Shown piece after piece: positions 224 through 11,912 of a stretch of DNA of 11,912 bases; the stretch's first letter is position 1, and each line of letters starts with the position of its first letter. A program made the translations under genes and the position numbers. Where the stretch lies: NCBI GenBank assembly GCA_030605285.1, contig JAUWIQ010000016.1:1-11912 (forward strand). Reading direction: 5' to 3'. The notes under the pieces were generated by a model, which saw only the letters and a program-made list of their open reading frames with translations, was not told the origin of the DNA and did no database searches. Source of the DNA: Planctomycetota bacterium. GTDB lineage: Bacteria > Planctomycetota > Planctomycetia > Pirellulales > UBA7805.

Positions 224-1429
224 ATGAAAGATCCGGTACTCGATGTTACAAAACTAGGCAAAAAATATTGTCGAACCTTGCGCCGTTCCATGCTGTACGG
301 CTTGGGGGATATCGCACGTGATTTTATCGGGGTCTCAACAAAACCGGATCGTTTGCGACAACATGAATTCTGGGCACTGCGAGATGCCACGTTCCAGTTG
401 CAACCGGGGCGCTCACTCGGCGTGATAGGTCGTAACGGATCGGGCAAGACAACGCTGCTCAAACTGCTAGCCGGTATTGTACAACCTGATCTGGGAACGT
501 TAACGGTGCAATGCCGTACAGGATCGCTGATTGAAATTGGCGCCGGCTTTCATCCGCTACTCACAGGCCGGGAAAACATTTTCATCAACGGAATGATTCT
601 CGGCATGAGTCGCCAGGAGATCATCCGTCACTTTGATGCGATTGTTGAATTCGCAGAAATTGGCAACTTCATCGATGGACCGGTACGCAACTATTCAAGC
701 GGCATGTATGTTCGCTTGGGTTTTGCCATTGCAGTACACGCTCCTGTTAACCTGCTACTGATCGACGAAGTTTTGGCCGTCGGCGATCTTGCATTCAGCC
801 AGAAATGTGTTCGCAAATTACTCGAGTTCAGATCGGCAGGCGGAACAGTTGTCCTTGTGACCCACGCGATGAAAAACGTCAAATTTCTTTGCGATGAAGC
901 CCTCTGGATTGATAATAGCGAGGTGAAACAGACCGGATCTGCATTGGAAGTGGTCGACGCCTACGAAACACACGTGAATGCCAATGCAGAAACAGGCGGG
1001 CAGGTCCTTGCTCATGACGACTGCGTGGACGTACTTGAAGTTCGCTATCCTGAGGCGATGCGTGTTGGCGAGCGACTGGAAGTAGAAATTGACTTTGAAT
1101 TTCAGCGACCGATACAGCAGCCAATATTTAATTTCCACCTCTTCGCCAACACCGATGAAACGCTTGTTGTCTCACATCACTCAGATCTGGAAGGATACAA
1201 TTGGGACTTGGCGAGCGGAAAAAAACGATTGCGAATTGCAACTGAGCCATTGTGGCTTCGCAGTGGAACGTACCTGATTACCTTCTCCGTTTCTGAAGGA
1301 CACATGAACAATCCGCTATTGGGTTATTACAAGTGTTACAAAATTGTTATTCAAAACCCCCACGAAATTTATGGCATCCTTGATGGTCGCGTAACATTTG
1401 AACTCTCCGATCAGCATGTTTTTATTTGA
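224..1429 (+). CDS. wzt: Polysaccharide ABC exporter ATPase with C-terminal glycan-recognition domain (Wzt-like)
   Basis: 401-residue ATPase of the O-antigen/teichoic-acid export group. Walker A is GRNGSGKT (69-76), the signature motif is YSSGM (157-161, the Wzt/TagH form of LSGGQ), Walker B is LLLIDE (177-182, catalytic Glu182), and the H-loop His is 214. The nucleotide-binding domain ends near residue 250. Residues about 265-395 are a beta-rich extension matching the position and size of the Wzt C-terminal domain. In E. coli O9a that domain recognises a modification at the non-reducing end of the finished chain before export. The N-terminus before Walker A is long, with an about 20-residue insertion before HEFWALRD, also common in this family. 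The start ATG follows the permease stop by 4 nt. The 3' end overlaps the methyltransferase gene by 14 bp. The family assignment is firm; which glycan is recognised is unknown. Confidence 0.95.
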   Translation: MKDPVLDVTKLGKKYCRTLRRSMLYGLGDIARDFIGVSTKPDRLRQHEFWALRDATFQLQPGRSLGVIGRNGSGKTTLLKLLAGIVQPDLGTLTVQCRTGSLIEIGAGFHPLLTGRENIFINGMILGMSRQEIIRHFDAIVEFAEIGNFIDGPVRNYSSGMYVRLGFAIAVHAPVNLLLIDEVLAVGDLAFSQKCVRKLLEFRSAGGTVVLVTHAMKNVKFLCDEALWIDNSEVKQTGSALEVVDAYETHVNANAETGGQVLAHDDCVDVLEVRYPEAMRVGERLEVEIDFEFQRPIQQPIFNFHLFANTDETLVVSHHSDLEGYNWDLASGKKRLRIATEPLWLRSGTYLITFSVSEGHMNNPLLGYYKCYKIVIQNPHEIYGILDGRVTFELSDQHVFI

Positions 1430-2123
1430 CACAGAGCGACAGCAACAATACCTGCAAACAGATAAAATTGCAGCTCGGTTGCCACAGATAGCGCGCACAC
1501 TCGATACCGACATCGATACGCATAAATGGCTGGTTGAGTCCAGTGCGAAACGGATGATTTTTGATGCGGTATATCACGATTTACTAGAGCCATCCCAGCA
1601 AAAGCAGCGCGTACTGGATGTCGGTGGTGGTTATACGGCGCTAACGCGAATTTTGGTCGAGCAGCACGATTATTGGACACTCGATGTGGGCGCACATACC
1701 GATACCCTGCAGATTCGTCAACTCGAGGAGGACTTGGGGAAACCATTCTGGATTTGTGAAGACTGGCAGCAGCACCCTGCCGACGATCCTTATCAGATCG
1801 TCATTGCCAATGACATATTCCCTAACGTTGATCAGCGGTTGGAGCTTTTCCTTAACACCTATTTGCCTCGCTGCAGTGAACTTCGGCTAACCGCAACCTA
1901 CTTTCACAGATACCACTGGTATCGCACACAACGTATTGATGCAGATGAGATCCTACATGTGTTAACCTGGAATGGTGCCCAACTGAAACAGGTGCTGAAC
2001 AAGTACCGTTCGTGTATCGTGGACCCAGACCTGGACTTGTTACTCAAACCCCGTCCCAGTCCGTTTGCCAACGACCGCCAAGTTGCAATGATTACATTTC
2101 GCGGAGAAAGAGATTTGTCGTGA
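1416..2123 (+). CDS. Class I SAM-dependent methyltransferase-like protein
   Basis: 235-residue protein if started at ATG 1416. A TTG at 1398 would add six residues, but ATG is preferred; neither has a convincing ribosome-binding site, which fits translational coupling with wzt, whose stop at 1427-1429 lies inside this gene. The SAM-binding motif I is RVLDVGGGYT (66-75). The acidic end of the next strand is LDVG (89-92), and VIANDIFPN (129-137) sits where motif post-II/IV is expected. No metal-binding or radical-SAM motif is seen. It could methylate a sugar hydroxyl on the glycan; directly after a Wzt with a recognition domain, a chain-terminating methylation is attractive but is inference. 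The 3' end overlaps the next gene by the 4-nt GTGA. The exact methyl acceptor cannot be told from sequence, and the part after residue 140 is not one I recognise. Confidence 0.8.
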   Translation: MFLFDTERQQQYLQTDKIAARLPQIARTLDTDIDTHKWLVESSAKRMIFDAVYHDLLEPSQQKQRVLDVGGGYTALTRILVEQHDYWTLDVGAHTDTLQIRQLEEDLGKPFWICEDWQQHPADDPYQIVIANDIFPNVDQRLELFLNTYLPRCSELRLTATYFHRYHWYRTQRIDADEILHVLTWNGAQLKQVLNKYRSCIVDPDLDLLLKPRPSPFANDRQVAMITFRGERDLS

Positions 2124-2812
2124 AACCTATTCGTGTCACATTCTTTGGAGATTCGATCTGTGTCGGACAATACATATCGATTCATAGTGGTTGGGTAGTA
2201 AAAATTTCAGAGCAGCTTTGCCAACTCAGCATTGAAATGCAACGGCCAATAGTTGTCAGTAATTCTTCGGCAAATGGTCGCACCACGCGCCAGGCACTGG
2301 AACATATCGGCTATGAGATTCAATCACATCAGGTCGCCCTCTTGCTGGTCCAATTTGGCATGAATGACTGCAACTACTGGCGCAATGATCGTGGGCTCCC
2401 ACGGGTAGGACCTGAGGCGTTCGCCGCCAACTTACGTGAAATTATAGAGCGCGCTTACCATTTCGGAACGGACACCGTTTTCTTGAATACAAATCATCCG
2501 ACCTCCCGCGATTGCGAAACGATACCTTACACTGATATCACCTACTAAGAAATTAATCGGAAATACAACGATCTTATTCGTGAGGTCGCGGCAACGTGCG
2601 GTGCCCCTACGCAACTGAATGATGTGGAAAAGGTCTTCAGGGAATATGTGGGCGATGATAAGACACGATTAGTAGAACTTTTGCTACCGGAACCGGACGG
2701 TCTCCATCTGAGTCAAAAAGGCCATGATCTCTACTTTGAAACAATCTATCCTCGGCTGGAAACCGCAGTGCAACGGTTGACTGACAAATCAGACAGCGAA
2801 CAACGGCAATGA
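2120..2812 (+). pseudogene. SGNH/GDSL hydrolase interrupted by one in-frame TAA
   Basis: A 230-codon frame runs from GTG 2120 to TGA 2810-2812, broken only by TAA at 2546-2548 (codon 143). Before the stop are block I FFGDSI (nucleophile Ser12), the block II region with Asn/Gly in SSANGRTT (49-56), and block III GMNDCN (80-85, Asn82). After the stop the same frame continues EINRKYNDLIREVA and reaches block V, PDGLHLS, with the catalytic Asp193 and His196. Both halves are clearly one SGNH esterase/acyltransferase-like protein, so the 142-residue truncated product would lack the Asp-His pair. Family members deacylate or acylate sugars and glycans. The gene starts inside the methyltransferase stop (GTGA) and ends inside the next start (ATGA), so operon architecture is intact. 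A GTG at 2624 could in principle start a second fragment, but I see no good ribosome-binding site. Nonsense mutation, sequence error and readthrough cannot be separated here. Confidence 0.85.
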
Positions 2813-3765
2813 ATCCTGATCCGATCCATTTAGAACTTGAAAAGCTGTTATTTTCAAAATATGCCGTACCGGGTGCGACCGCTAACACACCGACAGTCTT
2901 CGTACTGGCTTCTCCGCGAGCGGGTAGCACACTGTTGTACCAATGGCTGATCAACCACTTCGATATTTTCTATTTTCCCAACTTGGTAAATGAGCATTTT
3001 TCGGCAACACCAATTCTAGGAGGCCTGCTGGATTCGGCTCTGGCTTCAGTACGACCTCTCAAATATTCCAGCGCGTATGGCAAAACGACCGGCGCGCTAT
3101 CACCCTCCGAGGCATCGCTGATATTGCGGCACTGGTTTGGTGGGAAGCATCCATCACAGACCAACAGTTGCGCGATATTTCCCGAACAGGTATCGCATTT
3201 GATCGCCACCCTGACCGGTATTCATGCCATGACCGGAACACCGAGCCTCATCAAGAATGCCTGGAATTGTTTCCGCATCCAGTCGCTCGCGGAACGGTTA
3301 CCCGCTGCATGTTTTATTTGGTTGCGACGCGGTATTGGAAAAGCAGCACTCTCTGACCTCGAGTCCCGCTACCGCCATGGTTCGCCTCAGGAATGGAATT
3401 CGGCAACCCCCCACAACTACCGTCAGTTGAGCCAGCTGCCCTATTGGTAGCATGTAGTTTAGAAGCAAATTGAAACGAAGCATGCCGTCTGTCAACAACT
3501 GCAGAAATTGCCCACAGGCCGATTCATTGAGATCGGGTATTAGCAACTCTGCAATAGCCCAGGGATAATTCTTGGTCAAATCCGCGATTTTTTTGGCGTG
3601 CATCACCTCACCTGTGAAAATCTGGAAGTCGCAGTTCCAACATTGCAAGAATCTGCGGGGCCGCAAAACATGGAAGAGGACAAACGCCATATCGATGATT
3701 ATATTCGATTAGCAGAAGATCGCTTTAAGCCGTACCAATTCGATTCGGTTGCAGCGAGCGACTGA
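2809..3765 (+). pseudogene. Sulfotransferase family gene interrupted by three in-frame TAG codons
   Basis: The frame from ATG 2809 to TGA 3763-3765 spans 318 codons, a normal length for bacterial sulfotransferases, and contains TAG at codons 214 (3448), 218 (3460) and 245 (3541). The PAPS 5'-phosphosulfate loop is LASPRAGSTLLY (33-44). The 3'-phosphate-binding region is FIWLRRGIGKAALS (169-182), where a Gly at 175 replaces the Asp often seen after the two Arg. After the first stop the frame still reads as family sequence: KQIETKHAVCQQL, then GRFIEIGY, stop, QLCNSPG, which matches the usual Y-E-x-L element, then GQIRDFFGVH. No indel is seen. The start is coupled to the SGNH gene by ATGA. If active, it would transfer sulfate from PAPS to a sugar of the exported glycan. 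As written, only the N-terminal 213 residues would be made and they would probably not fold into an active enzyme. Confidence 0.82.
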
Positions 3766-3842: not shown

Positions 3843-5267
3843 ATGGGAAGCAAACCTCGGCGAATCCTGATAGTTTACGAACACCCCAATTCGGTGCCTT
3901 GTCGCGAAACCATGCGCAGCCACTTGAAGGTGTTTGAGGCCAGTTCAACAGAGCATCAGATTGAATACTTCAACTGCCGTGATGTCCTACCTCCGGACTG
4001 GGCACGTCGAAAAGTTACTCTTTCCCAACCAGCCGAGATACAAGGACGTTCATTTGACGTCGTGATTTTTCATTACAGCCTCTTAGGAATGCGGACGCTC
4101 GGTCAGACGTTTTTTCATTGGAAACAAATTTTTCGTTGGCTGGCAGATCTTCCCGGTTTGAAAATTGCAATCCCACAGGATGAGGGCGATTATGCCTCCC
4201 TACTGGATGAGTGGCTGGATGAGCTCGGAGTATCCATTATTTTTAGTGTCCACTATCGCCCGGAGGGTCCACTCTATCCAATGATGCGGCACAACGCGTC
4301 AATCTATCCCTGCCTACCTGGTTACATTGACGAAATGCATGCGCAACGCATTTCCGAATCACTGGTTCCAATGGCTGATCGGCCGATGGACATTGTTTAC
4401 CGGGCCCGTAATTTGTCATTCCGCTATGGATCGGCAGGCCGCCAAAAAGCATCTCTGGCTGAGGCAATCCTCAAATGCGCCGCACAACAAGATTTTGCCA
4501 TCGACATTTCGACCTGTCCTGCGGATACCATTACTGGAAAACACTGGTTCAATTTTTTAGCTTCCGCACGCGTCGTGCCAGATGCAGAAGGCGGGTACAG
4601 TGCCATCGACTGGCGGGGAGAATTACGGTCGCAATGCAATGCGCTGCTGCGTGAGGAGCAGGAGCTGTCGTTTGAGAAATTCTGTGGCTTGCTTCCCGAT
4701 GATTGGGATAATTATCAGTTGCGGACAATCACACCACGACATTTTGAAGCAATCATTACCAAGTCGTGTCAAGTTTTGGTAGAGGGAGATTACAAGGGTG
4801 TACTCAGGCCTCATGAGCATTACCTTTTGCTCCGTAAAGATTTCAGCAATCTTACGGAAGTCCTAGATACAATCCGCAACTACGGTTATCTTCAAGAGAT
4901 TGCTGATCGTGCCTACGAAGAAATCTATAGATCGAACGCTTATACCTACACAACGTGGGCACACCACCTGGAGACTGTCATCGAAGAACACGAAGTAAGC
5001 GACCAAACGAAGGATCTGCTCATGTCCGAATCTGATACTGATAAGTCCGCGGTCGATGCCTTGGAACGACAACTAATTGCGGCACGACAAGAAAACGCTC
5101 GGATTCAAGCCTCCTTGCATGAAATGGTGGGGGAAATTTCTGATCAGGTTGTGTCTCGTGTGATGCAAGAATTTCGATGTGCCATTATTCGTCGTCTACC
5201 ACTCTTAGTGGTAGGACTCATCGTGACAATTATGGTAATTGGGATTTTGATTTTCGCGACTCACTGA
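3843..5267 (+). CDS. Glycosyltransferase-like protein with coiled coil and C-terminal membrane anchor
   Basis: 474-residue protein. An in-frame TGA at 3831-3833 leaves ATG 3843 as the first possible start; no clear ribosome-binding site precedes it. The N-terminus (RRILIVYEHPNSVPCRETMRSHL) looks like the first beta strand of a GT-B type fold. The segment VLVEGDYKGVLRPHEHYLLLRKDFSN (from residue 311) matches the donor-side element found in a family of polysaccharide-locus glycosyltransferases, where Glu and His lie near the nucleotide sugar. A Glu/Gln-rich helical stretch (about 402-447) looks like a coiled coil. It is followed by a hydrophobic span (about 452-471) with only a few residues after it, so the protein ends as a tail anchor. 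Likely role: sugar transfer at the cytoplasmic face of the inner membrane. The fold call is moderately sure, while donor and acceptor are unknown. The frame is intact, unlike its two upstream neighbours. Confidence 0.8.
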   Translation: MGSKPRRILIVYEHPNSVPCRETMRSHLKVFEASSTEHQIEYFNCRDVLPPDWARRKVTLSQPAEIQGRSFDVVIFHYSLLGMRTLGQTFFHWKQIFRWLADLPGLKIAIPQDEGDYASLLDEWLDELGVSIIFSVHYRPEGPLYPMMRHNASIYPCLPGYIDEMHAQRISESLVPMADRPMDIVYRARNLSFRYGSAGRQKASLAEAILKCAAQQDFAIDISTCPADTITGKHWFNFLASARVVPDAEGGYSAIDWRGELRSQCNALLREEQELSFEKFCGLLPDDWDNYQLRTITPRHFEAIITKSCQVLVEGDYKGVLRPHEHYLLLRKDFSNLTEVLDTIRNYGYLQEIADRAYEEIYRSNAYTYTTWAHHLETVIEEHEVSDQTKDLLMSESDTDKSAVDALERQLIAARQENARIQASLHEMVGEISDQVVSRVMQEFRCAIIRRLPLLVVGLIVTIMVIGILIFATH

Positions 5268-5539: not shown

Positions 5540-7456
5540 ATGTGTGGTATCGCAGCAGCACTGCAACTCTCCTCGCAACCTGCCGAGCGGTTGGAAATTT
5601 CCCTGGGCGTCATGAACAAGCTCCAGCAACATCGGGGGCCGGATGGCGAAGGGCTCTGGAGCCATCCTCGCGGGCATGTGGGGCTAGGGCATCGTCGGTT
5701 GAGTGTGATTGATCTGGTGACTGGCGACCAGCCGATGGGCGACAAAGGCGGGAATTGGGTCAGCTACAACGGCGAGATCTACAACTATCGCGAGCTCCGC
5801 AATGAACTGGGGGCCGAGAACTTTACGACCACGTCCGATACCGAAGTCATCCTGCATGCCTATCGCAAATGGGGCCCCGACTGCGTGAGTCATTTTACAG
5901 GGATGTTCGCTTTCGCGCTGTGGGATGAACAAAGCCAAACCTTGTTTTGCGCCCGGGATCGATTCGGCATCAAACCTTTTTATTACGTGGTGGTGGACGA
6001 TCTCCTCTACTGCGCCAGTGAGGCCAAAGCTTTATTGCCCTTTCTTCCTCAAATCCGAACCGATATCGAAGGGCTCAAGGACTATCTCGCTTTTCAATTT
6101 TGTCTGGCCGGCAAGACACTTTTTCAAGATATCCACGAACTCCAGCCGGGACACTCCCTCACGGTGCGAAACGGCCAGCTGGCGGTGAATCGCTACTGGC
6201 AGGTCTACTACGATCTGGATTGGCAGCACACGGGGGATTATTTTCAGGAACAAATCTACCGACTGCTTGAGGACTCGGTGCGACTGCATCTTCGCGCCGA
6301 CGTTCCCGTGGGCAGCTACATCAGTGGCGGCTTTGATTCCGGTGCGGTCACCGCGATGGCAGCCCGGATGGTTTCCGACCCCTTGATGGGATTTACCGGA
6401 AAATTTCCGCTCGGCCCCGAATACGATGAGAGCCCTTATGCCCGCCAATTGGCTGAGCAGTATGCAATTTCACTCGACGAAACAGCAATTACGGCAGATG
6501 ATTTTCTAAAGAATATTCGCCGTGTGATCTACCACCTCGACTATCCTGTCGCGGGCCCTGGGTCGTTTCCGCAATTTATGGTTTCACGATCTGCGTCTCA
6601 GCACCGTAAGGTGGTGTTGGGAGGACAAGGGGGTGACGAAATCTTCGGTGGCTATGCACGGTATCTGATCGCATACTTTGAACAATGCATCAAGGCAGCA
6701 ATCGATGGAACGATGCACAACGGCAATTTCGTTGTTACGTACGAGAGTATCATTCCGAGCTTGTCGACTCTGAGACAATACAAGCCGCTGTTACAGCAGT
6801 TTTGGCGCGAGGGTCTCTTTGAAGATCTGGATCGGCGCTATTACCACTTGATCAATCGTACACCGGTACTTGAAAATGAAATCCGCTGGGAGTTGTTGGG
6901 CGACTACTCATCCTTTGAAACATTCAAAAATATTTTCCACGGTGAGAATGTTGAGAAAGAGTCGTATTTCGACCTGATGACACATTTTGACTTCAAGACA
7001 CTTCTGCCAGCGTTGCTGCACGTGGAGGATCGCGTCAGCATGGCGCATGGCCTGGAATCTCGGGTCCCGCTGCTCGACCATCCATTGGTTGAATTGTCGG
7101 CAACGATTCCCGCCAATATCAAGTTCCAGAACGGACACCTGAAACATATTTTCCGGGAGGCAACGCGCTCCCTGCTGCCAGACGGTATTGTGAACCGGAA
7201 CGACAAAATGGGCTTTCCGGTCCCGCTTTCCGAATGGATGCAGGACGAAGCAGGCGAATTCGTCCGCGACGTGCTTACTTCACGGGCGGCGAAGGGACGT
7301 GATTTTGTGAACAATGAATTGGTCGCGAGCCAAATCGACAACGAACCCCGCTTTGGCCGCAAGATCTGGGGGTTGCTGAGCCTGGAGTTATGGCAACAGG
7401 AATTTCACGACAAGGAGTCCCAATTCAAGGGTTTATTGCAGGACGCGGTGGTCTAA
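5540..7456 (+). CDS. asnB: Glutamine-hydrolysing asparagine synthase-like amidotransferase
   Basis: 638 residues, full length for the AsnB family. The protein starts MCGIAAAL, so removing Met exposes the Cys2 nucleophile of the class II glutaminase domain. HRGPDG (31-36), NGEIYNY (77-83) and the TTSDTEV stretch (97-103) complete that domain. The synthetase domain carries the PP-loop SGGFDS (262-267), which binds ATP, and GGQGGDEIFGGYARY further on. Ribosome-binding site AGGGA lies 9 nt before ATG 5540. It uses glutamine ammonia and ATP to amidate a carboxylate. In housekeeping the substrate is aspartate; in polysaccharide loci homologues are thought to amidate uronic acid sugars. Its position just before two sugar-nucleotide SDRs favours the glycan role, but sequence alone does not exclude asparagine synthesis. 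No key residue appears missing. Stop is TAA; a 101-bp gap follows. Confidence 0.93.
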   Translation: MCGIAAALQLSSQPAERLEISLGVMNKLQQHRGPDGEGLWSHPRGHVGLGHRRLSVIDLVTGDQPMGDKGGNWVSYNGEIYNYRELRNELGAENFTTTSDTEVILHAYRKWGPDCVSHFTGMFAFALWDEQSQTLFCARDRFGIKPFYYVVVDDLLYCASEAKALLPFLPQIRTDIEGLKDYLAFQFCLAGKTLFQDIHELQPGHSLTVRNGQLAVNRYWQVYYDLDWQHTGDYFQEQIYRLLEDSVRLHLRADVPVGSYISGGFDSGAVTAMAARMVSDPLMGFTGKFPLGPEYDESPYARQLAEQYAISLDETAITADDFLKNIRRVIYHLDYPVAGPGSFPQFMVSRSASQHRKVVLGGQGGDEIFGGYARYLIAYFEQCIKAAIDGTMHNGNFVVTYESIIPSLSTLRQYKPLLQQFWREGLFEDLDRRYYHLINRTPVLENEIRWELLGDYSSFETFKNIFHGENVEKESYFDLMTHFDFKTLLPALLHVEDRVSMAHGLESRVPLLDHPLVELSATIPANIKFQNGHLKHIFREATRSLLPDGIVNRNDKMGFPVPLSEWMQDEAGEFVRDVLTSRAAKGRDFVNNELVASQIDNEPRFGRKIWGLLSLELWQQEFHDKESQFKGLLQDAVV

Positions 7457-7557: not shown

Positions 7558-8493
7558 ATGAAAATCTTAATTACCGGTGGAGCCGGTTTTATTGGATCCC
7601 ATTTAGTCGATCGCCTCAGAGCACGTGGCGACGAGTTGCTCGTAATCGATAATTATACAACCGGCAGGCGCGATAATCTCGCGGAGCAGGATCGTCTCAC
7701 GATCGTGGAGGGAACCATTGCGGAGGCGGAGGTCGTCGATGAGGCATTTGACCACTTCGAGCCCGAAATGGTCGTCCATGCAGCCGCATCCTACAAAGAT
7801 CCCGACAACTGGTTGGAGGATATCCGCACCAACGCGTTGGGCACAGCGCACGTGGTACGCGCTGCCGAGCGGCATCGTGTCAAGCGATTGATCTACTTTC
7901 AGACCGCCCTCTGCTACGGACTGCATCCGCAGGAGCAACCCATCACCCTATCGCACCCCATCGATTCGACTGCCAGCAGCTATGCAATCAGTAAAACTGC
8001 CGGAGAGCAATATATCGCTCTCTCCGGACTGGATTTCATCTCGTTTCGCCTTGCGAACTGCTACGGTCCCCGAAATCTCAGCGGGCCCCTGCCTACATTT
8101 TTCCACCGACTCACCAACGACCAACCGTGCTACTGTGTCGATACGCGGCGGGATTTTGTCTTTGTGGACGACCTGCTGCAGGTTGTGGAAATGGCCATCG
8201 ACGGCAAAGGCTCCCGCGGGTACTACCACATCTCATCCGGGGGTGATTATTCGATTAAAGAACTTTTCGACGCCGCGGTCACCGCGATCGGTATCACGCT
8301 CGAAGAGGATGTCGAGGTAAAATCTCGTGGCGAAGATGATGCCTATACCATCCTGCTAGACCCGAGTCGTACCTGTGAGGATTTTGGCTGGTCGGCCGAC
8401 ACGCCCCTGGCGACTGGCGTAGCCCGGGCGGTTGCCTACTACCAGGAATATGGCATTCAAGAGACCTATACCCACCTGCAGCATAAAGGTTAG
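7558..8493 (+). CDS. NAD-dependent sugar-nucleotide epimerase/dehydratase (extended SDR)
   Basis: 311 residues. The Rossmann glycine motif is GGAGFIG (7-13), and Asp31 at the end of the second strand favours NAD over NADP. The catalytic set is Thr116 in FQTALCYG with Tyr142 and Lys146 in YAISK. RDFVFVDD (198-205) is the usual substrate-side element of UDP-sugar epimerases. The short C-terminal half (residues 170 on) binds the nucleotide sugar. GGAG is preceded by a normal start: TGGAGA at 7548-7553 lies 4 nt before ATG 7558. It probably acts on a UDP-hexose or UDP-hexuronic acid, in the cytoplasm, to feed the glycan locus. Which carbon is epimerised, or whether it is a decarboxylase or dehydratase, cannot be read from the sequence. 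The stop is TAG, 27 bp before the next SDR, so the two are likely cotranscribed. Confidence 0.92.
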   Translation: MKILITGGAGFIGSHLVDRLRARGDELLVIDNYTTGRRDNLAEQDRLTIVEGTIAEAEVVDEAFDHFEPEMVVHAAASYKDPDNWLEDIRTNALGTAHVVRAAERHRVKRLIYFQTALCYGLHPQEQPITLSHPIDSTASSYAISKTAGEQYIALSGLDFISFRLANCYGPRNLSGPLPTFFHRLTNDQPCYCVDTRRDFVFVDDLLQVVEMAIDGKGSRGYYHISSGGDYSIKELFDAAVTAIGITLEEDVEVKSRGEDDAYTILLDPSRTCEDFGWSADTPLATGVARAVAYYQEYGIQETYTHLQHKG

Positions 8494-8520: not shown

Positions 8521-9591
8521 ATGGCCCGTATCCTGGAACCGATTGCTGGATCCCACATTCTGATTGTGGGAGGCGCGGGTTTTGTCGGCAGCAATCTGGT
8601 GCGGCACCTGGTGGCTGGCAAAGTTGCACAAATCATCATTGTTGATAATCTACTCTCCTCCCAGCGGGATAATCTTCCACAAGCAGACAGCATCCGCCTG
8701 ATTCACGCGTCGATTAACACGGATGCGGTTTTGGAACAACTTCGGGACGAATTCGATTTTATCTTCCATCTGGCGACGTACCACGGCAATCAAAGCTCAC
8801 TCCACGATCCTCTAGCAGATCATGAAAATAACACGTTGACCACGCTCAAGCTATGCGAGCACATTAAGGATTTCCAGCGAGTCAAGTCGGTGGTCTACGC
8901 ATCGGCCGGTTGCACGGTGGCGAAAAAGACGAATGAAACGGCCACGGCCACGAATGAGGACGCGCCGGTTTCTCTTATCATGGACAGCCCCTATCAAATC
9001 TCAAAAATCATTGGCGAGCTTTACGGAAATTTTTATTTCAAACAATATGGACTGCCGTTCATCAAGGCCCGCTTCCAGAATGTCTACGGACCAGGCGAAG
9101 TACTCGGTGCCGGCGCATGGCGGGGGACGCCTGCGACCGTCTGGCGAAATGTAACACCCACATTCATTTACCGAGCCTTAAAGGGCATGCCGCTCGTCGT
9201 AGACAATGCAGGCGAAGCCACCCGCGACTTTATTTATGTGGATGATATTGTGGACGGTTTGTTGCGGTGTGCGATCCATGGTCAGGCAGGCGAAGTTTAT
9301 AATCTAGCGAGTGGTGCAGAGACCTCAATCAGAGAACTGGCAATCGCAATCAATCGCATCACCGGCAACTCTGCCCCCATCGAGTTTGGTCCTAGGCGAA
9401 CCTGGGACAGGTCGGGACGCCGCTTTGGCAGCACCTCAAAATCTGCGGAGGTGTTGAAATTCCGTGCCCAGACAACCCTCCCCGAAGGGCTTTCGCGTAC
9501 CATCGACTGGACGCGCAACAACCTGGACCGGATTGAAGCGTGTATCCAACGCCACGCCGAGGCAATGGCCCTCGCTGAGGGCCGAGAGTAA
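8521..9591 (+). CDS. Second NAD-dependent sugar-nucleotide epimerase/dehydratase (extended SDR)
   Basis: 356 residues with a ten-residue N-terminal extension before the Rossmann core. NAD-binding GGAGFVG is at 17-23 and Asp42 ends the second strand. Catalytic residues are Ser128 in ASAGC and Tyr158/Lys162 in YQISK. HLATYHGNQSSLHDP (83-97) and RDFIYVDD (235-242) are family hallmarks. An about 20-residue segment near 195-215 (GAGAWRGTP) is an insertion relative to the first SDR. The two SDRs are only distantly similar, so they likely catalyse different steps of one pathway rather than being a recent duplication. The start has no clear ribosome-binding site and may depend on reading from the upstream gene. 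Together with the upstream amidotransferase it resembles, as I recall it, the SDR/amidotransferase sets of O-antigen loci that make diacetamido-uronamide sugars (for example Bordetella wbm genes), but I cannot confirm homology here. Confidence 0.92.
   Translation: MARILEPIAGSHILIVGGAGFVGSNLVRHLVAGKVAQIIIVDNLLSSQRDNLPQADSIRLIHASINTDAVLEQLRDEFDFIFHLATYHGNQSSLHDPLADHENNTLTTLKLCEHIKDFQRVKSVVYASAGCTVAKKTNETATATNEDAPVSLIMDSPYQISKIIGELYGNFYFKQYGLPFIKARFQNVYGPGEVLGAGAWRGTPATVWRNVTPTFIYRALKGMPLVVDNAGEATRDFIYVDDIVDGLLRCAIHGQAGEVYNLASGAETSIRELAIAINRITGNSAPIEFGPRRTWDRSGRRFGSTSKSAEVLKFRAQTTLPEGLSRTIDWTRNNLDRIEACIQRHAEAMALAEGRE
9567..9583. repeat. Perfect 7-bp-arm hairpin at the end of the second SDR gene
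   Basis: GGCCCTC and GAGGGCC flank a GCT loop, inside the last codons of the SDR gene. No T-run follows on either strand, so it is not a standard intrinsic terminator. It may only stabilise the mRNA end or be coincidence of Ala/Leu/Glu codons. Confidence 0.35.
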
Positions 9592-9730: not shown

Positions 9731-10516
9731 CTACCGCCGCCGCCGTCTGATAAAACCGCGTGGGAGCAGAGCCAACCCTAAGAGGGCCAGCAGCAGTGCA
9801 CCCGGCTCAGGAATCGCAGCAGAAGATCCGGAAGTGGCGGGAGAAAATGAAAACTGGACAATCACGCTCAAGCCCGGATAGACCGACTCCGCAACCCCAT
9901 CGAGCGGTTGAGAGTCTTCCATGTATTTTAAAACGCTCGTATAAGGGGCGGTGTTTGTGTAATTCGTATCCAAAACAAATTTTTTATTGCTGAAATTTCC
10001 CGCCCATTCCCAATCAAACAGCAAGTCTCCCGCCAGCGGATCGTAGGTGAAGGGTGTAAGAAACGGAACCAAGATATCAAAGGCACTCGGAGAACTCGCT
10101 CCTCCCGGAGACGAGAGGGTCACCGGCCCGCTGTAGACGGTGGTGACATCAGCACCGACGTTATCCGCCAGCGTTGTGGACATGCTGCTTACGGTTGTTA
10201 CGGCAGTCGAAAGGCGGATCTCGAAATCTGTAAACGAGGCGCTGGTTGTTGTTGCACTTTTATCCAGGCGAAACGCAACCGAGTCGATGACAACGGGCAC
10301 ACCCGGCCCCGAAAAAAAGGAGCCGTCCATCATCATTTGATCATGTTCCGCGTCGGGTCCGCTCACGGGATCAAAGTGATAGAACCCGGGAGCTTCCAGG
10401 CTCTCATAATGCGGAACAATCGTGACCGTCTGGCCGTACACCGACCCAACGCCAGCCATCGCCCCCAGCACCACCGTGCACACCAAGACCCTGTGGGCCG
10501 TGGGTATTAAACGCAT
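9731..10516 (-). CDS. PEP-CTERM sorted secreted protein
   Basis: 261 residues from ATG 10516; an ATG at 10522 would add two. AGGGG at 10523-10527 sits 6 nt before the ATG at 10516 but directly abuts the ATG at 10522, so the inner start is preferred. The N-terminus is a signal peptide (Arg-rich start, hydrophobic stretch, cleavage likely after VYG near residue 28). The C-terminus has the sorting signal: IPEPGALLLALLGLALL followed by an Arg-rich tail. The middle is Ser/Thr-rich and beta-like, with an NKKFVLDTNYTN segment, and no enzymatic motif is seen. Proteins of this class are exported by Sec, processed by an exosortase and placed on the cell surface or in the matrix. No exosortase gene is in the window. 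The domain between residues 30 and 235 is not one I can name. Confidence 0.85.
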   Translation of the reverse strand: MRLIPTAHRVLVCTVVLGAMAGVGSVYGQTVTIVPHYESLEAPGFYHFDPVSGPDAEHDQMMMDGSFFSGPGVPVVIDSVAFRLDKSATTTSASFTDFEIRLSTAVTTVSSMSTTLADNVGADVTTVYSGPVTLSSPGGASSPSAFDILVPFLTPFTYDPLAGDLLFDWEWAGNFSNKKFVLDTNYTNTAPYTSVLKYMEDSQPLDGVAESVYPGLSVIVQFSFSPATSGSSAAIPEPGALLLALLGLALLPRGFIRRRRR

Positions 10517-10574
10517 CCCCATCCCCTGTAGCGCAGCTCTCGCTTGAACCCCTGTGAAGCAACCACTAACGGCT

Positions 10575-10847: not shown

Positions 10848-11600
10848 CTACCCCGCAGCGTGGCGCCGCCGCCGGAGTGCGCCACGTCGTGCCAGCAGGG
10901 ACAGGCTCAGCAGGGCTAGCAGCAGCGCACCCGGTTCGGGCACCGCGCTGACTCCGGCTGCTTCGTAGGTGTAGATCAATTCATAGGAAGCAGCAGCGGT
11001 CGTTTGAAACATACTGGCAACGTTCCCCTGGGAATCGGTTGCCTGGCTGCTACCCGACGCATCAACTGCCAGCGTGAGCGTACCCAAGCCACCTGCAATA
11101 CCATCGGCATCGGTGAAGTTCGGAAGTAAAATCGCCTCGACGACAGGATGGAAACTGGTAGTGCTGAGCGAGTCGGAGGCACTGCCGGTCAAACCCAACA
11201 AAGACTGACCGGAAGTACCACTGAAGTCGATCGTGCCATCGTAACTCGGAACCCCGTTAAAGGTGTCCAAATGGTTCGGAGTAATGCTGAGATCAAAAGG
11301 AACAGATGTACCGAGAACTTCACCGTCAATGCTTACTGCGGATTCTAAGATGATGTCGTTGCTGACCGCCGCCAGATTCTCATAACCGGCATTAGCATTG
11401 ATGTTACCAAAGAGGCTCAACTCAACGGACAACAGGGTACCGACAGTACCATCAAATTTGTCGAGTGCAGCCGTGCTGCTCCAGTTCGTATTCTGCAAAC
11501 TGAAGGAACCATTCTGTGTGATTTGATCGAATCCCTCAGCAGGTATTCCGACCATCACTGAAAGCGAAACGCCAAAGCTAATTAGAATGATCTTTTTCAT
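10848..11600 (-). CDS. PEP-CTERM sorted secreted protein, choice-of-anchor E-like
   Basis: 250 residues from ATG 11600, giving a classic MKKIILIS signal-peptide start; a GTG at 11606 would add two residues and has no better ribosome-binding site. A signal peptide covers about residues 1-23, with cleavage likely near AEG. Residues about 25-60 (FDQITQNGSFSLQ, then ALDKFDGTVGTLLSVELSLFG) match, by recollection, the opening of the choice-of-anchor E domain: a small beta-rich surface domain found ahead of different sorting tails. The tail is VPEPGALLLALLSLSLL then an Arg-rich end. Function of the domain is not known; the tail shows surface sorting by exosortase. The C-terminus reads PEPGALLLALL, identical for 11 residues to the neighbouring protein, while the bodies of the two proteins are unrelated. 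GC-rich coding and codon use look like the other minus-strand gene. Confidence 0.85.
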   Translation of the reverse strand: MKKIILISFGVSLSVMVGIPAEGFDQITQNGSFSLQNTNWSSTAALDKFDGTVGTLLSVELSLFGNINANAGYENLAAVSNDIILESAVSIDGEVLGTSVPFDLSITPNHLDTFNGVPSYDGTIDFSGTSGQSLLGLTGSASDSLSTTSFHPVVEAILLPNFTDADGIAGGLGTLTLAVDASGSSQATDSQGNVASMFQTTAAASYELIYTYEAAGVSAVPEPGALLLALLSLSLLARRGALRRRRHAAG

Positions 11601-11912
11601 TTCCACTGCGCATATTCATTCTTGAACATGACCTTCCGAAGGTGCAGACTCAAAGAAGCCCAACTACGGCCACGGTTTCTTTAATCTACCCGCATTGCGG
11701 GCAAAAGCAAGTGGTTTTTCGGGGCAACTGCCTGCGACGCCCGCAGCCGTTTCGTCAAACACTGCAGGAAAAGAGGCGGGAATCAACAGCAGGATGCAGG
11801 GCTCAAGGCCTGAAAATAAAAGCGGTCACAGAAAGGTTTCTCCGCGACCGTTTCCACGACTGCCTAGTCAACTGTCGCCACCGCTTCCCCTGTGAAAGAC
11901 TGACATAAAGAG
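11601..11912. other. 312-bp region upstream of the second PEP-CTERM gene, no gene supported
   Basis: A + strand frame (11642-11908) is open but starts with GTG without a ribosome-binding site and reads unlike a protein I know. Two short dyads are present: ACCTTC/GAAGGT (11631-11643) and CCCGC/GCGGG (11689-11701). I find no convincing -35/-10 pair for the downstream gene. Confidence 0.4.
11631..11643. repeat. Short palindrome upstream of the second PEP-CTERM gene
   Basis: ACCTTC and GAAGGT are perfect inverted arms around a single C, about 30 bp before the start codon at 11600. A regulator could bind there, but a 6-bp-arm dyad is weak evidence on its own. Confidence 0.25.

What the first reader, a model, noticed from the sequence alone, without database searches (positions are those of the whole stretch)
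3448..3765. Sulfotransferase frame continues through three amber codons with no indel
Seen: from ATG 2809 one frame runs to TGA 3763 and is broken only by TAG at 3448, 3460 and 3541. Family-like sequence resumes after each stop, including the Y-x-Q/E-L-C element spanning the third stop. All three are substitutions; a drifting pseudogene would usually also collect frameshifts. Each TAG is one base from GAG or CAG, and the third sits where the family usually has Glu. Either the gene was inactivated very recently by point changes, the base calls are wrong, or TAG is suppressed in this message.
Basis: partly seen in the sequence, partly recalled or inferred. Interest (0 to 1): 0.72.

Follow-up and report, generated by a model that had tools for sequence, protein, structure and literature searches.

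The report
Likely base-call errors in sulfotransferase gene
A bacterial sulfotransferase gene and its neighbour look broken by four stop codons, but near-identical unbroken copies exist elsewhere and the differences carry the fingerprint of sequencing-machine misreads, so this is most likely an ordinary working gene in a poorly read stretch of a metagenome contig.

Summary
Frame 2809-3765 holds TAG at 3448, 3460 and 3541, no indel, and aligns end to end with an uninterrupted 318-residue protein (P0001, 94% identical). All four stops sit where the nearest relative has Glu.

The window differs from these relatives at 23 residues. Fifteen, including the four stops, are explained by an A/C or G/T exchange (two of the 15 also by another transversion). 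In all 11 of these that are not stops, the relative holds the family's commoner residue. Ten sulfotransferase differences fall within about 110 bases, none a transition; its seven transitions lie outside. A/C and G/T exchanges were the commonest HiSeq miscalls in one study, and indels rare (PMC3334598, passages). A weaker test on four other genes showed no clear excess. TAG and TAA end neighbouring genes.

Best reading: base-call errors in a thinly covered metagenome contig. A real recent pseudogene is the serious rival. Suppression is very unlikely.

The parts
2809..3765 (+). Sulfotransferase gene (PF13469, Sulfotransfer_3), 318 codons, interrupted in this contig by three TAG
   Evidence: same length and end as uninterrupted relative P0001 (94%)
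3448..3450 (+). in-frame TAG no. 1; Glu column in the family (89%)
3460..3462 (+). in-frame TAG no. 2; Glu column in the family (91%)
3541..3543 (+). in-frame TAG no. 3; Glu of the family's W-Y-E-x-x-C element (94%)
3433..3543 (+). patch of 111 bases with 10 of the 19 residue differences from P0001: none a transition, 9 of 10 compatible with an A/C or G/T exchange
2120..2812 (+). SGNH/GDSL hydrolase gene (PF13472), 230 codons, interrupted by one TAA; 4 of 4 differences from P0241 are A/C or G/T exchanges (start residue not compared)
2546..2548 (+). in-frame TAA in the SGNH hydrolase; Glu in the two closest relatives, mostly Gln in the wider family
224..1429 (+). ABC transporter ATPase with Wzt C-terminal domain, intact (polysaccharide export)
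1416..2123 (+). methyltransferase-like gene, intact, syntenic in relatives (Pfam hit below the curated cut-off; the calls used 1425-2120)
3843..5267 (+). 474-aa protein without Pfam or NCBIfam match above cut-off, intact, in the same loci as the sulfotransferase in 11 of 16 genome loci
5540..7456 (+). asparagine synthase-type amidotransferase, intact, ends in TAA
7558..8493 (+). NAD-dependent sugar epimerase/dehydratase 1, intact, ends in TAG (TAG acts as a terminator in this contig)
8521..9591 (+). NAD-dependent sugar epimerase/dehydratase 2, intact, ends in TAA

Best explanation
The sulfotransferase and SGNH-hydrolase genes are most likely intact in the organism. The four stops and about eleven missense differences in the same two genes are base-call errors that an assembler kept because this part of a metagenome contig rested on one or a few poor short reads. 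Shown: uninterrupted close relatives exist; the changes are private to the window, clustered and dominated by A/C and G/T exchanges, with no indels. Inferred: that the platform was Illumina with low coverage here, since reads and coverage are not available. The intact enzymes would decorate a surface polysaccharide exported by the Wzt-type transporter (inferred from the gene neighbourhood).
For: Uninterrupted relatives: P0001, 94% over 100% of the frame; P0241, 98% over 100%; P0242, 85% by BLASTP and 95% in the alignment. Of 23 residue differences (19 sulfotransferase vs P0001, 4 SGNH vs P0241), 13 are unambiguous A/C or G/T exchanges, 2 are compatible, 1 is another transversion, 7 are transitions. 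13 of 14 unambiguous transversions are of this class (binomial 9e-4). 15 of 23 compatible gives p 3.7e-3, 2.0e-4 and 1.8e-6 at transition weights 1, 2 and 4; 13 of 23 unambiguous gives 0.033, 3.5e-3 and 7.9e-5. Polarity: in 15 of 15 the relative holds the family's commoner residue (trivially so for the 4 stops, so 11 of 11 informative), against 2 of 8 among the other differences (5 the other way, 1 tie). Clustering: 9 differences in 32 residues, reached by 233 of 200,000 random placements; transversions inside and transitions outside the patch, Fisher 7e-4. Published HiSeq errors: A/C 29.2% and G/T 26.8% of substitutions, substitutions 99.5% of errors in one data set, 6.5% error in low-quality read tails, densely packed regions (PMC3334598, passages). 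In 16 of 16 genome loci the matched sulfotransferase stretch has no stop; it reaches past residue 245 in 14 of the 16.
Against: No reads, coverage or platform data could be examined. The relatives' DNA could not be fetched, so synonymous changes are unseen and each class is inferred from a residue and a codon. The relatives are different strains. The protein database lists predicted proteins, so it would not show interrupted copies as such. The patch was picked because of its stops, so its p-values are partly post hoc, and the strictest variant (13 unambiguous of 23, no transition bias) is only 0.033. A/C plus G/T makes up 56% of HiSeq errors in PMC3334598, less pure than 9 of 10 in the patch. 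The control on other genes is weak: it uses conserved columns against distant relatives, and in the SGNH gene that same test caught only 1 of the 4 known private changes. An oxidative mutator would give the same exchange classes (recalled). P0001 itself deviates at 8 conserved columns, more than 27 of its 35 relatives (the window: 15, exceeded by 1 of 35), so constraint may be relaxed in this lineage.
Confidence: 0.8

Rival explanations
1. A genuine, very recent double pseudogene: this strain has lost the SGNH hydrolase and sulfotransferase by point mutations while sister strains keep them, perhaps in a background with oxidative (8-oxoguanine) mutation bias.
For: Four stops in two adjacent genes plus missense changes at near-invariant columns, private to the window; the flanking genes are intact. 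Oxidative mutagenesis gives G:C to T:A and A:T to C:G (recalled, no call), the same two classes as seen. P0001 is already somewhat deviant.
Against: Ten changes in about 110 bases of one gene, with no clear excess of that class in the 474-aa gene, methyltransferase, amidotransferase and epimerase 1 (a weak control), is odd for a genome-wide mutator; ordinary decay would show transitions and indels.
Confidence: 0.17
2. TAG (and TAA) are read through as an amino acid, presumably Glu, in these two messages or in this organism.
For: All four stops stand where the nearest relative has Glu, and the frame is preserved after each.
Against: Both TAG and TAA would have to be read; epimerase 1 ends in TAG and two other genes in TAA, with matches to relatives running to residue 310 of 311, 638 of 638 and 349 of 356; missense changes at near-invariant residues sit among the stops; none of 5 places, 23 places in 21 matching genomes of 392 or 4 places in 4 of 384 has TAG or TAA inside (one weak hit in each of the last two has TGA only); no tRNA in the window (the genome is not held).
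Confidence: 0.01
3. Mis-assembly joining reads from two strains, or a diverged paralogue, rather than base-call error.
For: The patch is about one read long and the rest of the gene is close to P0001.
Against: A second strain should differ largely by transitions and at variable columns, not by private changes at conserved ones. No paralogue from the own genome could be sought.
Confidence: 0.02

Closest known systems
Sulfotransferase family PF13469 (Sulfotransfer_3)
   Same: Window piece 2809-3447 scores above the curated cut-off (43.9 vs 27 bits), as does P0001 over nearly the full profile (64.7 bits); 35-48% identical to the other 119 listed relatives.
   Different: Three stops in the window copy. 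(The listed relatives are predicted proteins, so they could not show internal stops; the six-frame genome searches showed no TAG or TAA in the sulfotransferase matches.)
Spurious gene disruption from Illumina base-call error (error profile of Minoche et al. 2011, PMC3334598; author name recalled)
   Same: A/C and G/T exchanges dominate, indels are absent, errors are densely packed in a stretch about one read long (passages seen).
   Different: There errors were scored in reads against a reference; here they are inferred from protein-level comparison with sister strains, and the reads are not available.
TAG/TAA reassignment or suppression (phages such as crAss-like, listing; ciliate codes with TAA and TAG as Glu, recalled)
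   Same: In-frame TAG/TAA at positions where relatives have a sense residue.
   Different: TAG and TAA terminate other genes of the same contig, and the in-frame stops are confined to two genes beside private missense changes.

Membership tests
Sulfotransferase PF13469 | Profile match above the gathering score | tested here: met
   (N-terminal piece 43.9 bits, cut-off 27; C-terminal piece alone 15.1 bits, below it); P0001 64.7 bits
Sulfotransferase PF13469 | N-terminal PAPS-binding motif P-R-x-G-S-T (role recalled) | tested here: met
   residues 36-41, conserved columns
Sulfotransferase PF13469 | Sulfotransferase activity | not testable with these tools
   only weak matches to solved relatives (CurM sulfotransferase, tyrosine sulfotransferase; E 2.3e-5 or worse)
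Illumina base-call error patch | Excess of A/C and G/T exchanges over other classes | tested here: met
   13 of 14 unambiguous transversions
Illumina base-call error patch | Changes private to this sequence, absent from close relatives | tested here: met
   (relative's residue commoner in the family in 11 of 11 non-stop changes)
Illumina base-call error patch | No indels | tested here: met
Illumina base-call error patch | Low coverage or poor quality in the reads at the patch | not testable with these tools
   no reads held; no genome held
Stop-codon reassignment or suppression | Reassigned stop not used as terminator, or used rarely | tested here: not met
   epimerase 1 ends in TAG, amidotransferase and epimerase 2 end in TAA, near the end of the matches to relatives
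Stop-codon reassignment or suppression | Cognate suppressor tRNA | tested here: inconclusive
   no tRNA in the window; genome not held
Stop-codon reassignment or suppression | Same in-frame stop in relatives | tested here: not met
   (six-frame searches)

The most novel reading that the evidence does not exclude
The changes are real: a burst of oxidative-type transversions (A/C and G/T classes) confined to about 1.3 kb has switched off two glycan-decorating genes in this strain while sister strains keep them, i.e. local hypermutation of a surface-polysaccharide locus.
Probability: 0.05. Interest if true: 0.5.

Novelty: not a real feature. Interest (0 to 1): 0.08.

Why it matters
It shows a way to tell a base-call artefact from a pseudogene or recoding in a single metagenome contig: polarise residue differences against a close relative and the family, then sort them by exchange class. 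Here that argues against a would-be amber-suppression case. If the stops were real, the strain would have lost two conserved steps of a surface-glycan cluster.

Tried and rejected
Suppression or reassignment: rejected for the reasons given under rivals. A window-wide error rate: tested by deviations from conserved columns. The 474-aa gene deviates at 12 of 126 (1 unambiguous A/C-G/T, 4 transitions, 1 other transversion, 2 with all three classes possible, 4 multi-step). The methyltransferase deviates at 2 of 34 (none of that class) and the amidotransferase at 6 of 157 (1 unambiguous, 2 with all classes possible, 1 transition, 2 other transversions). Epimerase 1 deviated at 38 of 159 columns against only 6 relatives: 7 unambiguous A/C-G/T, 5 that or another transversion, 6 other transversions, 6 transitions, 14 multi-step. 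Five of the 7 crowd in bases 7636-7849. With the closer relative L029, 9 of 119 columns remained: 3 of that class, 1 ambiguous, 2 transitions, 1 other transversion, 2 multi-step. So there is no clear second patch, but a small one is not excluded. That alignment of ten rows contains near-duplicates (by equal identity, L032 of L016 and L033 of L030); L031 was left out as a copy of L016. The transporter and epimerase 2 were not tested (1 and 3 usable relatives). This control is weak: applied to the SGNH gene it showed only 1 of the 4 changes that the sister comparison shows.

Searches that led nowhere: plasmids by DNA, no match, and by protein, 2 records under 30% identity; viral contigs, none; Rfam, none; tRNA, none. 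The one genome-contig scan gave 16 loci of 36-50% identity, not the sister strain; the genome searches likewise. The DNA behind P0001 and P0241 was not found in these collections; metagenome scans are capped at zero and were not tried. A literature search on spurious stops in metagenome assemblies gave nothing I used (listing only); one on reassignment was seen as listing only.

Full report
What is there. The frame from ATG 2809 to TGA 3765 encodes a sulfotransferase interrupted by TAG at 3448, 3460 and 3541 with no indel. The pieces before and after match consecutive parts of Pfam Sulfotransfer_3, the second below the cut-off. The frame with X at the stops aligns end to end with P0001, an uninterrupted 318-residue protein 94% identical, from a 10,640-base contig; the other relatives listed are at 48% or less (120 of 130 hits listed). 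A second close relative, P0242, also lacks the stop but is 24 residues shorter in the middle. The protein database holds predicted proteins, so it shows that uninterrupted copies exist; it could not show interrupted ones as such.

Setting. No genome is held for the window. The window length, 11,912, equals the contig length listed for its own 474-aa protein P0121, so it looks like a complete metagenome contig (inference). The gene order is Wzt-type ABC ATPase, methyltransferase-like gene, SGNH hydrolase, sulfotransferase, 474-aa protein, amidotransferase, two sugar epimerases/dehydratases, then two PEP-CTERM-like proteins on the other strand. In 16 loci from named genomes the sulfotransferase match has no stop in 16 of 16 (the matched stretch reaches past residue 245 in 14; L006 ends at 218 and L013 at 234). 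An SGNH match is present in 13 of 16, a methyltransferase match in 12 of 16 and a 474-aa match in 11 of 16, some partial. Two SGNH matches contain one stop each, at query residues 221 and 224 of 230, i.e. near the natural end. The order methyltransferase - SGNH - sulfotransferase - 474-aa - amidotransferase - epimerases is kept in four of the 16 (L003, L008, L009, L016), recorded as Opitutales or Opitutia. The cluster is therefore conserved and probably a surface-glycan locus; the broken state was seen in this contig only. Taxonomy of the window is not settled.

The differences. Against P0001 the window differs at 19 of 318 residues, against P0241 at 4 of 230 (the start residue was left out). 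Each was classed by the single-base routes between the window codon and the relative's residue. The sulfotransferase gives 7 transitions, 9 unambiguous A/C-or-G/T exchanges, 2 that are that or another transversion, and 1 other transversion. The SGNH hydrolase gives 4 of 4 A/C-or-G/T exchanges. All four stops are of that class. Against the second SGNH relative, P0242, there are 10 differences: 4 of that class, the stop among them, and 6 transitions. Of 14 unambiguous transversions (P0001 and P0241 comparisons) 13 are A/C-or-G/T (binomial 9e-4). Of all 23 differences 15 are compatible (p 3.7e-3, 2.0e-4 and 1.8e-6 for transition weights 1, 2 and 4); counting only the 13 unambiguous ones gives 0.033, 3.5e-3 and 7.9e-5.

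Polarity and clustering. In 15 of 15 of the A/C-G/T-compatible differences the relative, not the window, holds the family's commoner residue. For the 4 stops that is trivial, so 11 of 11 are informative. Among the other 8 the split is 2 relative, 5 window, 1 tie. So there seem to be two populations: scattered transitions that look like ordinary strain divergence, and window-private A/C-G/T exchanges. The second is concentrated: 10 sulfotransferase differences lie in residues 209-245 (bases 3433-3543) and none is a transition, while all 7 transitions and two further A/C-G/T exchanges lie outside (Fisher 7e-4). Nine differences in 32 residues was reached by 233 of 200,000 random placements. These tests are partly post hoc because the stops drew attention to the patch.

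Why base-call error. PMC3334598 (passages seen) reports for Illumina HiSeq that A/C (29.2%) and G/T (26.8%) exchanges are the commonest substitution errors, each pair sharing a laser; that 99.5% of errors are substitutions in one data set; that low-quality read tails carry 6.5% errors; and that errors pile up in distinct regions. A MiSeq study (PMC4381044; passages) also notes a bias of A and C, read by the same laser. A patch about one read long with roughly 9% non-synonymous changes per base, nearly all of this class, and no indel, is what a contig stretch resting on one bad read could show. This step is inference: no reads could be examined, and the patch is purer in these classes than the 56% average of that study.

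Why not the alternatives. Reassignment: TAG ends epimerase 1, and TAA ends the amidotransferase and epimerase 2; matches to relatives run to residues 310 of 311, 638 of 638 and 349 of 356. Reading both TAG and TAA would be needed, and private missense changes at near-invariant columns (residues 215, 219, 224, 243) accompany the stops. Six-frame genome searches showed no TAG or TAA inside the sulfotransferase matches: 5 places in 5 genomes, 23 places in 21 of 392, 4 places in 4 of 384. One weak hit in each has TGA only. The five genomes are those of L016, L003, L007, L011 and L002, and two of them recur, so these are not independent.

A real pseudogene remains possible. The same exchange classes arise from 8-oxoguanine mutagenesis (recalled). 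P0001 already deviates at 8 conserved columns, more than 27 of its 35 relatives; the window deviates at 15, exceeded by 1 of 35. A mutator should mark the neighbouring genes too. Tests on the 474-aa gene, methyltransferase, amidotransferase and epimerase 1 show no clear excess, but that control is weak, since in the SGNH gene it caught only 1 of 4 known changes.

Verdict. Most likely (0.8) an intact sulfotransferase and an intact SGNH hydrolase, made to look broken by base-call error in a thin stretch of a metagenome contig. Not a real biological feature; interest low.

Noticed in passing
   Followed up: yes
window 3843-5267: 474-aa protein without Pfam or NCBIfam match above cut-off, with relatives in 11 of 16 genome loci that hold the sulfotransferase: an unnamed family of surface-glycan clusters.
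   Followed up: partly
window 7609-7888: First part of epimerase 1 showed several A/C-G/T-type deviations from six relatives; most vanished with a closer relative.
   Followed up: partly
window 9731-10522 and 10848-11606, - strand: Two proteins with PEP-CTERM-like C-termini (below the curated cut-offs), one with a choice-of-anchor E domain, downstream of the cluster.
   Followed up: no
P0242 (relative of window 2120-2812): A close relative of the SGNH hydrolase, in a 1,153-base contig, lacks 24 residues in the middle; possibly another assembly artefact.
   Followed up: no
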